Shown in pieces: positions 1,616 through 17,775 of a stretch of DNA of 20,580 nucleotides. Position numbers and translations under genes: made by a program. Position 1 is the first letter of the stretch. Every line of letters begins with the position of its first letter. The stretch is from a virus, in IMG/VR virus record IMGVR_UViG_3300032087_001176, positions 1 to 20,580 of that record, one strand, 5' to 3'. Under the pieces are notes generated by a model. That model ran no database searches and was not told the origin of the DNA. It saw only the letters and a program-made list of their open reading frames with translations.

Positions 1616-1646
1616 TTGCATACGTATGCAAAAACGGCTAAATAAT
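1616..1646 (+). promoter_or_regulatory. 16-bp palindrome and putative integrase promoter
   Basis: TTGCATACGTATGCAA (1616-1631) is a perfect 16-bp palindrome. It could include a weak -35 (TTGCAT), followed after 19 bp by AATAAT (1641-1646), which matches a sigma70 -10 box at five of six positions. A dimeric repressor bound at the palindrome would block this promoter. The integrase start lies 60 bp downstream. The palindrome is directly visible; the promoter assignment is inference. Confidence 0.45.
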
Positions 1647-2719: not shown

Positions 2720-2740
2720 TTACAACCAACACACACACAT

Positions 2741-3220
2741 ATGAAGACAATACTACTATTAACATCACTCCTCGCGGTGTCATCGCTGGGAGCCTTTACA
2801 ATACTTGATATTAACGACGGCTTACTAGCCAACGAGCCCAAGGTAGCCTTCAAGGGAGGCAGCACCAAGGTACGCCTAGACAACGGCGACTTCTTTAAGA
2901 TGCAGGGCTTTGGAGACCGCGTAGAGCTACAGAGCGTCTCTAACAAGGACTGGTCGTTCGACAACAAGGTTATCTATTCAGGTGAGTTACCACTCGCTGA
3001 CATCTATAACCTCAGCCAGAGCGACATCCTTACTATCACGGCTACAGCACGTCACGACAATCTTACTGAGTACGCCGTAGGACTTATCAAATACTTTAAC
3101 AACGGTAAGCTGACCCTCAGAGCTGTTTCGGTACACGCTGTGCCAGAACCAAACACGTTTGCTCTGTTAGCTGGTTTGTTTGCTTTCTTTCACGTCGCAA
3201 TGAAGCGCCGTGCAGCCTAA
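2741..3220 (+). CDS. Secreted PEP-CTERM sorting-signal protein encoded by the phage
   Basis: A 159-aa protein with a Sec signal peptide (MKTILLLTSLLAVSSLGA, residues 1-18) and a tripartite C-terminal signal. That signal is VPEP at 134-137, a hydrophobic helix at about 139-154 and a terminal KRRAA. This is the PEP-CTERM architecture, recognised by exosortase in Gram-negative exopolysaccharide producers and leading to export and surface or EPS association. The middle (19-133) looks beta-rich and has no recognised enzyme motif. The start follows a 21-nt G-free leader 21 nt after the integrase stop, so it probably shares its transcript. Its place between int and attP fits a lysogenic-conversion gene. 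The C-terminal signal is clear; the mature domain's function is unknown. Confidence 0.85.
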   Translation: MKTILLLTSLLAVSSLGAFTILDINDGLLANEPKVAFKGGSTKVRLDNGDFFKMQGFGDRVELQSVSNKDWSFDNKVIYSGELPLADIYNLSQSDILTITATARHDNLTEYAVGLIKYFNNGKLTLRAVSVHAVPEPNTFALLAGLFAFFHVAMKRRAA

Positions 3221-3227
3221 CCCCAAA

Positions 3228-3473
3228 ATGCACGAAACTTACAAATGTCTTGAGATTGATGGCGTCGATGTTGACGTTACCATCCACTGGGTAGCCGAGG
3301 AGTGTGGTGAAGACTACTACATCGGTGACGCCCACGTTTGGAGAAGCACCACAGAGTATCGCATAAGCCACGTCGAGTCCGACGATGAAATATATGACTT
3401 CGAGTACGCTCCGCTGACAGCTTTCGAGGTCGCCGTATCCGCAGCATACCAACAGAACCACTTTGAACCCTAA
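3228..3473 (+). CDS. Hypothetical acidic protein (81 aa)
   Basis: The product is not recognised. The ATG at 3228, 7 nt after the PEP-CTERM gene stop, is preferred; a GTG at 3210 in the same frame would overlap that gene and add six residues. The protein is acidic and aromatic-rich (DGVDVDVTIHWVAEECGEDYY), with likely beta strands followed by a helix near the C-terminus (LTAFEVAVSAAYQQN). It has no membrane segment. It is probably co-transcribed with int and the PEP-CTERM gene. Confidence 0.5.
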   Translation: MHETYKCLEIDGVDVDVTIHWVAEECGEDYYIGDAHVWRSTTEYRISHVESDDEIYDFEYAPLTAFEVAVSAAYQQNHFEP

Positions 3474-3654: not shown

Positions 3655-3851
3655 GTATATCAAAAACTAATCGCCCTATGTTCAAACCCACGACCGAGGA
3701 CGTTCTTACACGCGGTCTTAACGCTATGACGATGGCTTGTGATTCCCTAACCAAGCAAAACCAAACCCTGAACAAGGATATTGAGGGTCTTAAAGCCAAG
3801 ATTGCTAGGTTACAGGACAGGATTCTCACCGAAGGTGGTGAAAAGCGGTGA
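3651..3851 (+). CDS. Hypothetical coiled-coil protein (66 aa)
   Basis: The start overlaps the previous stop (ATGA at 3651-3654), indicating translational coupling. The C-terminal half (about 33-60) has heptad-like spacing of hydrophobic residues in a charged helix (LNKDIEGLKAKIARLQDRIL), so a dimeric coiled coil is likely. The N-terminal half is unrecognised. The gene ends within the first GTGACAA repeat of the attachment region. A role as a small accessory factor in recombination is possible but not shown. Confidence 0.5.
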   Translation: MSISKTNRPMFKPTTEDVLTRGLNAMTMACDSLTKQNQTLNKDIEGLKAKIARLQDRILTEGGEKR

Positions 3852-4136
3852 CAAATTAGTGACAAACTACGTCATCGGTGACAAATCGCGACAAATCCAA
3901 CCCATAATGAGAACATTCCGTAAACTTGACAAAACGCGGAATAAGTCTTTTAATTCAAACACTTAAGTGGTACCCAAGGTCGGACTCGAACCGACACGCC
4001 CGTTAAGGCGGGGGATTTTGAATCCGCTGTAATCGCCAGACTCAGTCTAAATTACTGAAATTACTACAATAATTACAAATACTTATCCCCAGTATCGGTG
4101 ACAACGCTATAGCCGTGGTGACAAACTGGTGACAAT
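3848..4136 (+). repeat. Repeated GTGACAA boxes flanking the attP core (possible integrase arm sites)
   Basis: This region has no convincing gene apart from the first four bases, which overlap the preceding gene's stop. The 7-mer GTGACAA occurs in direct orientation at 3848, 3859, 3878, 4098, 4118 and 4129, with near copies at 3888 (GCGACAA) and 3926 (TTGACAA). The left group starts are 11, 19 and 10 bp apart and the right group 20 and 11 bp apart, close to multiples of a helical turn. The tRNA-like core lies between the groups. This layout is what arm-type integrase or accessory-factor sites look like in temperate phage attP regions. Iterons or regulator sites for the RNA polymerase gene at 4146 are alternatives. 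Confidence 0.6.
3968..4027 (-). other. attP: attP core: 3' half of a tRNA-Leu(CAA)
   Basis: On the minus strand this reads as the 3' half of a tRNA-Leu. It has an anticodon loop TTCAAAA (anticodon CAA), the 3' anticodon stem TCCCC, and a long variable arm with CGCC/GGCG stem. The T-arm is GTCGG-TTCGAGT-CCGAC, and the acceptor strand CTTGGGT-A-CCA includes an encoded CCA. The 5' half of a tRNA is missing: there is no ACCCAAG acceptor strand upstream, and the 5' anticodon stem (GCGGA) already mismatches once. A tRNA 3' end in a phage with an integrase is the usual attP signature, because integration restores the host tRNA. The crossover is expected at or near the anticodon stem-loop. Confidence 0.8.
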
Positions 4137-7559: not shown

Positions 7560-9172
7560 CGGCGATTGCCACACACCAACCCTGCCCCGATTGTGGGAGC
7601 AGTGACGCATTAACACACAACGCAGACGGAAGCACCAAGTGCTACTCCTGCGGACTGTTCACACCGAACAGGAACAAAACAAACACACCAACACAACACA
7701 CAAGTATGAGTAACGTATCACCGCTTGGATTCGTCCAAGGTAAGTTTATGGACATCACCCCACGGGGGATTAACAAGGAAACCTGCACCAAGTACAGCTA
7801 CCAAATCGGAGAGATGAACGGCAAGCCCTGCCACATCGCCAACTACCGTAACCTCGATGGAGCGCAGGTCGCACAGAAGTACCGCTTTGCTGACAAGAGC
7901 TTCCACTGCAACGGAACTCCGAACTATTTCTTTGGGCAGAACCTGTGGCCTAACGGAGGTAAGAAGCTGGTCATCACCGAGGGTGAGATTGACTGCCTGA
8001 CCGTTAGCCAGCTTCAAGGAAACAAGTGGCCCTGTGTGTCCCTACCGAGCGGGGCTCAGTCGGCCAAGAGTATCTTTAAGCGTCAACTGGAGTGGCTCTC
8101 ATCGTGGGATGAGGTCGTTGTTATGTTCGACCAAGACAAGGCAGGACGTGAGGCGGCTGAGAGTGTTGCTCACATCCTTCCCGCTGGTAAGTGCAAGATT
8201 GCTCGCCTGAGCGGTAAAGACCCCAATGAGATGCTACTCGCCAACAAAGGCGACGAAGTTATCCGCGCATTCTGGGACGCTAAGGTATGGCGACCAGATG
8301 ACATCGTAGATGGCACTGAGCTGTATGAACGCCTGACCACACCGAAGTTAAACGACAGCATCCCCTACCCCTACAGCGGTCTTAACGATATGACCCGCGG
8401 TATGCGCAAGGGAGAGATTGTTACCTTCTGTGCTGGTTCTGGTATCGGTAAGTCAGCGGTCTGTAAGGAGATTGCACTACACGTTCTCAAGTCCACCGAC
8501 CGCAAGCTTGGATACATTGCCCTTGAGGAATCCATTGAGCGCACCGCTAACGGTATCATCGGTCTGGAGATGTCTCGCCCACTTCACCTTGAGCCCTTCG
8601 AGGCTGACGAGGCGTACAACAAGGCGTACAAGGATACAGTCGGCTCTGGTCGCTTCTTCCTGTATGACCACTGGGGTTCTCTGGATAGCGACAACCTACT
8701 TGGTCACATCCGTTATATGGCTAAAGCTATGGACGTTGACTACGTAGTTCTCGACCACCTCTCCATTGTTGTCTCTGGTATGGGCGACGGAGATGAACGC
8801 CGTATGATTGATAACACTATGACGAAGCTCCGTGCTCTCGTCGAGGAAACCAAGATTGGTGTTATCCTTGTTAGCCACCTCAAGCGCCCTGAAGGTAAGG
8901 GACACGAGGAAGGTGCAGCCACTTCCCTAGCGCAACTCCGAGGCTCCGCTGCCATCGCCCAGTTGTCCGATATGTGCATCGGCTTGGAGCGTAATCAGCA
9001 AGACAAAGAGAACCGTAACCGCACAGCCCTTCGTGTCCTTAAGAACCGCTTCAGCGGTGAGACAGGGCTAGCTTGTCAGCTCCTATACAACAAGGAGACT
9101 GGACGAATTTCAGAAGAAACAAACCCTCTGTTCGCTGACACCGAAGACGAGGCTAACCCGTTCACCCATTAA
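7547..9172 (+). CDS. Bifunctional DNA primase-helicase (T7 gp4-like)
   Basis: A 541-aa homologue of T7 gp4 (566 aa) that unwinds the fork and makes primers. Order: a zinc-binding domain with C13-x2-C16 and C32-x2-C35, then a TOPRIM primase with E145 (VITEGEID) and DQD at 195-197 (MFDQDKAG). The RecA-like hexameric helicase carries Walker A AGSGIGKS at 296-303 (K302), Walker B VLDHL with D403 and a sensor-like LVSHLKRP (H444). The ATG at 7547 is chosen because it begins just before the zinc finger and overlaps the endonuclease stop; an upstream ATG at 7370 in the same frame would only add shadow sequence. Met54 (7706), after a G-free stretch in the linker, could start a shorter helicase-only form as in T7 gp4B. 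Confidence 0.95.
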   Translation: MDELTAIATHQPCPDCGSSDALTHNADGSTKCYSCGLFTPNRNKTNTPTQHTSMSNVSPLGFVQGKFMDITPRGINKETCTKYSYQIGEMNGKPCHIANYRNLDGAQVAQKYRFADKSFHCNGTPNYFFGQNLWPNGGKKLVITEGEIDCLTVSQLQGNKWPCVSLPSGAQSAKSIFKRQLEWLSSWDEVVVMFDQDKAGREAAESVAHILPAGKCKIARLSGKDPNEMLLANKGDEVIRAFWDAKVWRPDDIVDGTELYERLTTPKLNDSIPYPYSGLNDMTRGMRKGEIVTFCAGSGIGKSAVCKEIALHVLKSTDRKLGYIALEESIERTANGIIGLEMSRPLHLEPFEADEAYNKAYKDTVGSGRFFLYDHWGSLDSDNLLGHIRYMAKAMDVDYVVLDHLSIVVSGMGDGDERRMIDNTMTKLRALVEETKIGVILVSHLKRPEGKGHEEGAATSLAQLRGSAAIAQLSDMCIGLERNQQDKENRNRTALRVLKNRFSGETGLACQLLYNKETGRISEETNPLFADTEDEANPFTH

Positions 9173-13316: not shown

Positions 13317-14813
13317 ATGCCAGATATTACAGTTAGTAGCTCAGTAGATAAATTACTGAAATCAGATAACGAAAACGACATCCGCTCAAACATAGGTCTT
13401 GGAGCTGCTGACGTCCCATCGTTTGGGGGTTTAAACCTCCCCGATGGTGTTACCTTTGGGATGTTATCCTCCCAATTAAAGTCTTCCATCGCTGGTAGTC
13501 TTGACCCTGAAGACTACGCAGGGGAATTGACTGATAGCACTTTTAATTTCCCTAGCGCGTCAAGTAGTGCGGGTAAATGGTATTACTTAAATGGCGTTAG
13601 TGGGACACTTACAGGCTCAAACGCCCCCTCAGGTATTGCTGAAGATGGTGGTTATGCGTTCAGTGATGGCTCCGCTTGGTCGCTAAGAGGAGCTACACCA
13701 ACGAACATACTCGACGGGAGTGTTACAGCGGCTAAAACCTCGTTCCTCACCCCTACCCGTAACATTTTCGACATAAGTTCGATTACAGAAAACACCTTCC
13801 TAAACGCTGGTAATGGAAACACATCAACAAACACAACCTACTTCGTCTCAGACTTCATTGAGGTACAGGCGGGTCAGACTTATTTCTGTAAGAGTACAAT
13901 CCTAAATCGCAATATGCGAGGTTGGGCTGCTTACGATTCTAGTTTTGTAAGAGTGGGAGCTGAAAGTAGCACAGACAGCGGTAATACGATTACTGTACCA
14001 GCTAGCGGTGTTAAGTATTACAAGTTTATTGGTTACATGGATGCAAAAGAAGGTTACCAGTTCGAACTTGGAGCTGCACAAACAAAGTTTATTGCTAACG
14101 GTTACCATTTAGATACTACAAAAATTATTCCAGAAGTTGAGTTACCGTTGTACTCTAACTGGGTTGGTAAAAAATTCACCAGCTACGGGGATAGTGTTAC
14201 TGCTGGTAATTACTGGCAGCAGCATATTGTACCTTATTTCGATTTAGACCACACCAACCGTGGGCAAGGCGGTCGTAGAATATCTGGTAATGGTTCAGTT
14301 ACGACAGCTATGTGCTTCCAAGCGGATGTAGATACAATCGCCACCGACTGCGAGCTTCTTATCGTTATGGGTGGCGTTAATGATTGGGCAAACAACTGTC
14401 CACTAGGCTCGCCAAATAGCGTCGACACAAACGATTTCTATGGTGCTCTCAATGTGATGTCGGAGCGTTTAACGACGCGATTACCTAACTGCCGAATTGT
14501 GTATGCAACAACCACCTATTCGGAATACGCTGATGGTAATTGGCAAGTGAGAACGCTAGGTAATCCTTGGTCGAGCGGAGCTGTTAATGGTGCTGGTTTA
14601 AGCTCAAACGACTACGCAGAGGCTATACGGGTTGTGGCAAAAAAGTGGGGGTTCCCGATTATGGATTGCGCGGCTGAGGATGGTGTTAACACTGTTAATG
14701 TTGACGCTTACCGAGCTGATGATGGCAACCATTTTCACCATAACGAAATAGGTGGTAAGAGAACCGCTGAAACAGGTATTAAGCTCCTTTCGAGTCTTGC
14801 ACCCCTCTCTTAA
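13317..14813 (+). CDS. Tail fibre/spike with C-terminal SGNH-hydrolase (esterase) domain
   Basis: A 498-aa protein. The N-terminus (about 1-60) has the fibre-type pattern KLLKSDNENDIRSNIGLGAA. The middle, about 150-255, resembles beta-sandwich or carbohydrate-binding modules (SDFIEVQAGQTYF). The C-terminal domain (about 280-495) has SGNH blocks: YGDSVTAG with nucleophile S293, NRGQGG (G316), MGGVND (N355), and DDGNHFH with D469 and H472. Such domains in fibres usually remove O-acetyl or similar esters from surface polysaccharide during adsorption. It lies upstream of the portal, not after the internal virion genes where T7 has gp17. An intrinsic terminator follows directly. Confidence 0.88.
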   Translation: MPDITVSSSVDKLLKSDNENDIRSNIGLGAADVPSFGGLNLPDGVTFGMLSSQLKSSIAGSLDPEDYAGELTDSTFNFPSASSSAGKWYYLNGVSGTLTGSNAPSGIAEDGGYAFSDGSAWSLRGATPTNILDGSVTAAKTSFLTPTRNIFDISSITENTFLNAGNGNTSTNTTYFVSDFIEVQAGQTYFCKSTILNRNMRGWAAYDSSFVRVGAESSTDSGNTITVPASGVKYYKFIGYMDAKEGYQFELGAAQTKFIANGYHLDTTKIIPEVELPLYSNWVGKKFTSYGDSVTAGNYWQQHIVPYFDLDHTNRGQGGRRISGNGSVTTAMCFQADVDTIATDCELLIVMGGVNDWANNCPLGSPNSVDTNDFYGALNVMSERLTTRLPNCRIVYATTTYSEYADGNWQVRTLGNPWSSGAVNGAGLSSNDYAEAIRVVAKKWGFPIMDCAAEDGVNTVNVDAYRADDGNHFHHNEIGGKRTAETGIKLLSSLAPLS

Positions 14814-17370: not shown

Positions 17371-17775
17371 ATGTCTATCGAACTTTTATCAATGCTTGGA
17401 GGTGGCGTCACGGGTTTCGTGATGCGCCTCATAGCTTCCCAAGCGGAAGCACAGGGTAAGGCTCTTGAACGAGCTCTCGCCCTTCAATCGGCTGCTGACG
17501 ACTCTGCTGACCGAGCTGCTGCTCGTAACGCTGGTGTGTGGGTACGACGCCTTATTGCTGCGTGTATCCTGTTTGCGGTCATCATCGCCCCCTTCGTTCT
17601 TGCTGTTATCGACGTACCTGTTGCCTTGGAGACCGAGCGTTCGGGCATCCTGAAACTACTACTAGGTAACGGAGGTTATAAACAAGTTGAAGGTTTCATC
17701 TTACTTCCAGAGGTACGCCAAGGTATGCTGGCTTTGCTTAGCTTCTACTTTGGTTCCTCAATGGTCAAACGCTAA
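17371..17775 (+). CDS. Holin-like membrane protein (134 aa)
   Basis: A small membrane protein with a Gly-rich N-terminal hydrophobic stretch (LLSMLGGGVTGFVMRLIA) and an Ala-rich charged helix (QGKALERALALQSAADDSADRAA). A strong transmembrane helix follows at about 61-83 (LIAACILFAVIIAPFVLAVI), with a final hydrophobic segment (GMLALLSFYFGSSM) ending in KR. The topology resembles three-TM holins seen in podoviruses. The next gene encodes a lysozyme-like protein, so a membrane-permeabilising lysis role is likely. It begins 3 nt after the scaffold stop, and its last 89 nt are shared with the start of the next gene in another frame. Confidence 0.65.
   Translation: MSIELLSMLGGGVTGFVMRLIASQAEAQGKALERALALQSAADDSADRAAARNAGVWVRRLIAACILFAVIIAPFVLAVIDVPVALETERSGILKLLLGNGGYKQVEGFILLPEVRQGMLALLSFYFGSSMVKR

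What the first reader, a model, noticed from the sequence alone, without database searches (positions are those of the whole stretch)
2741..3220. Phage-encoded PEP-CTERM (exosortase-sorted) surface protein in the lysogeny module
Seen: an N-terminal signal peptide, VPEP at residues 134-137, a hydrophobic helix and a terminal KRR, all in a gene 21 nt downstream of the integrase and upstream of attP. Known: PEP-CTERM is the exosortase sorting signal of Gram-negative bacteria that make exopolysaccharide. Inference: the prophage uses host exosortase to place its own protein on the cell surface or in the matrix, which could block superinfection, alter receptor access or change biofilm properties. 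I know of no described phage protein with this sorting route, though I could not search.
Basis: partly seen in the sequence, partly recalled or inferred. Interest (0 to 1): 0.88.

Follow-up and report, generated by a model that had tools for sequence, protein, structure and literature searches.

The report
Phage gene with host surface-sorting tag
A marine phage carries, next to its integrase, a small extra gene for an exported protein ending in the tag that bacteria use to sort their own surface proteins (PEP-CTERM); the same gene has hopped as a single-gene cassette among several unrelated phages, which suggests phages use it to alter the surface of the cells they infect, although nothing has been tested at the bench.

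Summary
Window 2741-3220 encodes 159 aa: signal peptide, ~115-aa beta-rich domain, VPEP at 134-137, hydrophobic helix, KRR. PEP-CTERM models hit it near their cut-offs. Nine further complete homologues lie in IMG/VR contigs; all keep signal peptide, PE[P/I/L], helix and basic tail, against 0 of 22,500 shuffled ORFs. They sit in three or four unrelated phage types (T7-like temperate, T4-like, others).

The gene is a single-gene cassette: near-identical phages differ by its clean presence or absence; one allele sits in unrelated backbones, and divergent alleles are swapped inside near-identical backbones. It is not confined to prophages.

Host evidence conflicts: attP equals a Rhodobacterales tRNA-Leu, but Rhodobacterales use VPxPA/XrtD; accessory genes and missing Shine-Dalgarno signals match a Puniceicoccales (Verrucomicrobiota) phage.

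Best reading: an exported phage moron borrowing host exosortase sorting. A surface or superinfection role is inferred; a spanin-like lysis role is the main rival. I found no published phage PEP-CTERM protein in the open-access library searched.

The parts
2741..3220 (+). PEP-CTERM-type cassette gene, 159 aa
   Evidence: homologues; exact presence/absence of 2721-3224 versus L013
2741..2794 (+). signal peptide, residues 1-18 (cleavage site approximate)
   Evidence: sequence; conserved hydrophobic stretch without lipobox in all homologues tested, (SignalP not available)
2795..3139 (+). mature beta-rich domain, residues 19-133
   Evidence: AlphaFold2 pLDDT 92.2; dN/dS 0.11-0.18 where not saturated
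3140..3217 (+). PEP-CTERM-type tail, residues 134-159: VPEP, hydrophobic helix, KRRAA
1706..2719 (+). tyrosine integrase
   Evidence: PF00589 6.5e-17; phrog_1
3228..3473 (+). small ORF of unknown function that directly follows the integrase in L013, where the PEP gene is absent
   Evidence: no Pfam match
3968..4025 (.). attP core, 3' part of a tRNA-Leu(CAA) gene in reverse orientation
   Evidence: 58-nt exact match to tRNA-Leu of Rhodobacterales genomes
3846..4135 (.). GGTGACAA(A) direct repeats on both sides of the attP core, probable integrase arm sites
17371..17775 (+). holin-like membrane protein shared with phage P8625 and the T4-like carriers; used here as host evidence

Best explanation
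The gene is a single-gene accessory cassette (moron) of phages of a Gram-negative, PEP-CTERM-using marine host, most likely Puniceicoccales (Verrucomicrobiota). The protein is exported by its signal peptide and held in the inner membrane by its C-terminal helix. It is then recognised at PE(P) by the host's exosortase, cut and passed to the cell surface or matrix, so that the phage displays its ~115-aa beta domain on the cell it occupies. The likeliest benefit is to change what competing phages or neighbours meet at the surface (superinfection exclusion or receptor masking), during lysogeny in the T7-like phages and during infection in the others. Shown: architecture, conservation, purifying selection, cassette behaviour. 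Inferred: exosortase processing, location, function.
For: Tripartite tail plus signal peptide in all 10 complete homologues, 0 of 22,500 shuffles. PF07589/TIGR02595 hits near or above cut-off; PF07589 matches 6 and TIGR02595 7 of 10 members at E <= 1. Clean single-gene presence/absence in two phage pairs. Same allele in unrelated backbones and swapped alleles in near-identical backbones. Carriers of three or four phage types. Purifying selection. Host: P8625-specific gene matches and lack of Shine-Dalgarno signals.
Against: HMM scores are borderline. L003, L016 and L063 have PEI/PEL, not PEP. attP equals a Rhodobacterales tRNA, where signals are VPxPA with XrtD and 8 of 10 attB-bearing genomes sampled lack an exosortase. 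No exosortase could be looked for in Puniceicoccales. No functional data; no domain or fold match. SleB endolysin lies next to the gene in four contigs, which fits lysis too.
Confidence: 0.5

Rival explanations
1. It is an unusual unimolecular spanin: an exported beta-rich protein bridging the periplasm by its C-terminal membrane helix, used with the endolysin to disrupt the outer membrane. The PEP motif would be incidental or borrowed.
For: u-spanins have a C-terminal transmembrane domain and a mainly beta periplasmic domain without cysteines (PMC6139136); the model here is beta-rich. An exported SleB-type endolysin lies directly upstream in L002, L003, L057 and L063.
Against: No lipobox in any homologue tested, whereas u-spanins carry an N-terminal lipoylation signal. 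In the T7-like phages the gene sits between integrase and attP, away from the holin-like gene at 17371, and is cleanly absent from sister phages. PE is invariant.
Confidence: 0.2
2. It is an ordinary membrane-anchored exported phage protein, for example a superinfection-exclusion protein, with its C-terminal helix a permanent inner-membrane anchor and no exosortase involved.
For: Borderline HMM scores; PEI/PEL variants; an exosortase-poor set of attB-bearing Rhodobacterales. Cassette and allele-swap behaviour fits exclusion without sorting.
Against: An invariant PE at a fixed distance from the helix in 10 homologues, with helix and basic tail kept while their sequence diverges, is what a sorting signal predicts and a plain anchor does not need.
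Confidence: 0.25
3. It is a host surface protein gene picked up by chance and carried without benefit to the phage.
For: PEP-CTERM proteins are a bacterial class (PMC1569441), and phages capture host genes (general knowledge).
Against: No bacterial homologue in a scan of 84,980 species genomes (narrow patterns) or in 197 Rhodobacterales genomes. Purifying selection and repeated retention in three or four phage types.
Confidence: 0.05

Closest known systems
PEP-CTERM / exosortase (EpsH) sorting, TIGR02595 / PF07589 (PMC1569441)
   Same: N-terminal signal peptide, PEP-type motif, C-terminal helix, basic cluster; the rest of the protein without known homology, as is usual for this class
   Different: Encoded by phages; third motif position varies (P, I, L); HMM scores borderline; exosortase of the host not identified
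VPLPA-CTERM / XrtD of Rhodobacterales (TIGR04152)
   Same: The attP core matches tRNA-Leu of this order; same tripartite logic
   Different: Motif is PE[PIL], not VPxPA; the VPLPA model does not match the tail at E <= 10
Morons / lysogenic conversion and superinfection-exclusion genes of prophages
   Same: Single gene, present or absent in otherwise collinear phages, at what would be a prophage end
   Different: Also in T4-like and other phages; carries a host exosortase-type tag; no promoter or terminator of its own recognised
Unimolecular spanins (T1 gp11; PMC6139136)
   Same: Exported, beta-rich domain, C-terminal membrane helix; endolysin neighbour in four contigs
   Different: No lipobox; integrase-linked in the T7-like phages; invariant PE motif
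Verrucomicrobia phage P8625 (KP792622; PMC4642752)
   Same: Shares the holin-like protein (50% with the window, 66-70% with the T4-like carriers) and the gene beside the cassette (55% with L011)
   Different: A lytic siphophage in which no gene with this tail was found

Membership tests
PEP-CTERM exosortase substrate | N-terminal signal peptide | tested here: met
   Hydrophobic stretch and cleavage-like sites in all homologues tested by a simple scan; SignalP not available
PEP-CTERM exosortase substrate | PEP-type motif, helix and basic cluster at the C-terminus | tested here: met
   third residue is I or L in L003, L016, L063
PEP-CTERM exosortase substrate | Score above the curated model cut-off | tested here: inconclusive
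   PF07589 17.0 by hmmscan, 20.4-20.8 in the genome search, cut-off 20.7; TIGR02595 12.8 whole protein, 17.4 tail alone, cut-off 16; L002 17.3
PEP-CTERM exosortase substrate | Host has an exosortase of matching type | tested here: inconclusive
PEP-CTERM exosortase substrate | Cleavage and surface delivery | not testable with these tools
   needs experiment
VPLPA-CTERM (XrtD) substrate | VPLPA motif | tested here: not met
Phage moron (accessory cassette) | Single-gene presence/absence between collinear phages | tested here: met
   window/L013 and L025/L010
Phage moron (accessory cassette) | Horizontal movement between unrelated phages | tested here: met
   L011/L057 and L057/L060
Phage moron (accessory cassette) | Own promoter and terminator | tested here: inconclusive
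   no consensus sites on the + strand, but the host promoter type is unknown
Phage moron (accessory cassette) | Expressed from the prophage | not testable with these tools
   needs transcript data
Unimolecular spanin | N-terminal lipobox | tested here: not met
Unimolecular spanin | C-terminal membrane helix and beta-rich periplasmic domain | tested here: met
Unimolecular spanin | Location in a lysis cassette | tested here: inconclusive
   SleB upstream in four contigs; integrase upstream in the window, L011 and L025 and one small gene away in L016

The most novel reading that the evidence does not exclude
Phages of marine Verrucomicrobiota share a mobile one-gene cassette that hijacks the host exosortase to place a phage-made protein on the cell surface, and swap divergent alleles of it, so that it acts as an exclusion or identity marker among competing phages.
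Probability: 0.35. Interest if true: 0.85.

Novelty: new variant of a known kind. Interest (0 to 1): 0.62.

Why it matters
Exosortase sorting is known as a bacterial system whose substrates are mostly of unknown function. A phage-borne substrate family, moved around as a cassette, would show that phages exploit it and would give a small, testable substrate whose benefit can be measured by plating. It would also be among the first candidate surface-modification genes in phages of marine Verrucomicrobiota, for which P8625 was described as the first lytic phage (PMC4642752).

Tried and rejected
Chance match: rejected. Member of a PHROG family: no match. Relative in cultured phages: none by tblastn apart from noise. 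Bacterial homologues: none found, with limited reach. Known fold: no Foldseek match at E <= 0.001 in PDB for either model or in BFVD for the full-length model; best VIA Z 4.9 (PAS-like or lipoprotein-like chains), at the level the tool calls common; this does not show a new fold. Sequence search of PDB: only weak hits to a cadmium-efflux accessory protein, ignored. Literature: papers holding 'PEP-CTERM' together with 'phage' and 'exosortase', or with 'bacteriophage', showed no phage-encoded PEP-CTERM protein by title and abstract; one was opened, and there the term concerns host genes. First idea that the host is Rhodobacterales because attP matches: kept open, but sister phages carry a different tRNA-Leu attP absent from 299 Pseudomonadota and 150 Rhodobacterales genomes.

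Full report
What is there. Window 2741-3220 (+) encodes a 159-residue protein 21 nt downstream of a tyrosine integrase (1706-2719) and upstream of a 58-nt segment identical to the 3' part of a tRNA-Leu(CAA) gene (3968-4025) flanked by GGTGACAA repeats, a convincing attP. The window belongs to a T7-like phage: single-subunit RNA polymerase, head-tail connector, major head protein. The protein has a signal peptide, a central domain, VPEP at 134-137, a hydrophobic helix and KRR. PF07589 gives 17.0 bits by hmmscan and 20.4-20.8 in the genome search (cut-off 20.7); TIGR02595 gives 12.8 on the whole protein and 17.4 on the tail alone (cut-off 16). By model scores alone this is borderline.

Family evidence. 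Homologues were found in IMG/VR: complete in L002, L003, L011, L016, L025, L057, L059, L060 and L063, cut by the contig end in L058, disrupted in L062. Their tails read IPEPETF or IPEPETV, IPEIAAF, LPELAEF and LPELSNM. P135, E136, L142, G145, L146 and R156 are invariant. Signal peptide, helix and basic tail are kept, and there is no lipobox. Among 1,125 ORFs of these viral loci only this family has the tripartite tail, and none of 22,500 shuffled ORFs does. Where synonymous change is not saturated, dN/dS of the central domain is 0.11-0.18, so it is a real, selected protein.

A mobile single-gene cassette. The window and L013 align at 91% through the integrase and 93-95% beyond; the window has exactly one extra gene, 2721-3224, between the integrase and the next ORF. 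L025 and L010 show the same: 97.5% before, 96% over the long stretch beyond, one extra gene, this one. L011 (T7-like, integrase) and L057 (a different phage with primase-like and dNMP kinase genes) share the gene at 89% over 457 nt; otherwise only a repeat-protein gene beside it aligns. L057 and L063 are 94-97% identical upstream and 89% downstream of the locus but carry alleles with only 51% nucleotide identity. L002 and L003 are T4-like (gp32 in L002; L003 is 75-89% identical to L002). L059/L060 share only this gene with L057 by blastn and seem a further type. So three or four unrelated phage types carry it. This is how morons behave, and the allele swaps suggest selection for difference.

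Host. Exact matches to the attP core in 84,980 species genomes are three Rhodobacterales, and the L012/L013 variant also matches Rhodobacterales exactly. But sister phages with related integrases (L010, L011, L025, L016) carry another tRNA-Leu segment, absent from 299 Pseudomonadota and 150 Rhodobacterales genomes with up to three mismatches. Rhodobacterales tails found here are nearly all VPxPA, and the two exosortases scanned are VPLPA-specific XrtD. Against 50,697 phage records, the window's holin-like protein matches only phage P8625 (two entries of one phage) of Puniceicoccales sp. IMCC8625 and a phage of unknown host; the repeat-protein gene next to the cassette in L011 matches P8625 at 55% and otherwise gives one weak hit. 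Shine-Dalgarno-like sites precede 4 of 22 window genes (background 14%) and 8 of 52 P8625 genes (13%), but 26 of 44 genes of Roseobacter phage CRP-171 (8%) (Fisher p 0.002 for window versus CRP-171). The window gene starts were chosen by me, so this test is approximate. I favour Puniceicoccales, about 70%, and cannot explain the attP match. IMCC8625 is nearest to Coraliomargarita akajimensis, 95.4% by 16S (PMC4642752). In the same phylum Verrucomicrobium spinosum has 65 PEP-CTERM proteins (PMC1569441); whether Puniceicoccales have exosortases was not tested.

Structure. AlphaFold2 on ten homologues gives a confident beta-rich domain (pLDDT 92.2) with no convincing match in PDB. A missing match is not evidence of a new fold.

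Mechanism. Shown: an exported-type protein with a PEP-CTERM-type tail, selected, and moved as a one-gene cassette. Inferred: inner-membrane capture, exosortase recognition at PE(P), cleavage and surface or matrix delivery, and a benefit in superinfection or receptor masking. In the T7-like phages the gene, lying between integrase and attP, would be at a prophage end, a usual place for conversion genes (inference). Main rivals: a plain membrane-anchored exclusion protein without exosortase; and a spanin-like lysis role, because SleB-type endolysins with signal peptides lie directly upstream in L002, L003, L057 and L063. Against the latter stand the missing lipobox, the integrase linkage in T7-like phages and the clean absence in sisters.

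Novelty. The papers found with PEP-CTERM and phage, bacteriophage or auxiliary metabolic genes gave no phage-encoded case by title and abstract. Only open-access papers were searched, so this is weak evidence of absence. I rate it a new variant of a known kind: a moron that uses a known host sorting signal.

Noticed in passing
window 3968-4025; L011 near 5264, L025 near 1542, L016 near 1600, L010 near 2245: Phages with closely related integrases (94% aa between window and L010) carry attP cores from two quite different tRNA-Leu(CAA) genes, one identical to Rhodobacterales, the other absent from the Pseudomonadota sampled. Possible change of host phylum with little change in integrase.
   Followed up: partly
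L002 7369-7827; L003 up to 7883; L057 5130-5549; L063 up to 7920: SleB-type cell-wall hydrolase with a signal peptide lies directly upstream of the PEP gene in these non-integrase contexts.
   Followed up: partly
L011 4287-4799; L057 6198-6919; L058 2622-4260; L063 near 8490-8763; P8625 27304-27762: A family of repeat proteins (units like YYEDSDGYWERYE) accompanies the PEP gene in several phages and is shared with Verrucomicrobia phage P8625; copies vary in number and unit count.
   Followed up: partly
window, gene starts throughout: Gene starts lack Shine-Dalgarno-like sites and often follow A/C-rich leaders such as ACACACACATATG; P8625 and uncultured phage AP013544 also lack them, Roseobacter phage CRP-171 does not.
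   Followed up: partly
window 1616-1631: Perfect 16-bp palindrome TTGCATACGTATGCAA upstream of the integrase, next to a near-repeat AATGTCGGACAATT / AATGTCAGACAATT; possible operator.
   Followed up: no
window 13317-14813: 498-aa protein with a GDSL/SGNH hydrolase domain (PF13472), possibly a tail-associated surface-polymer esterase.
   Followed up: no
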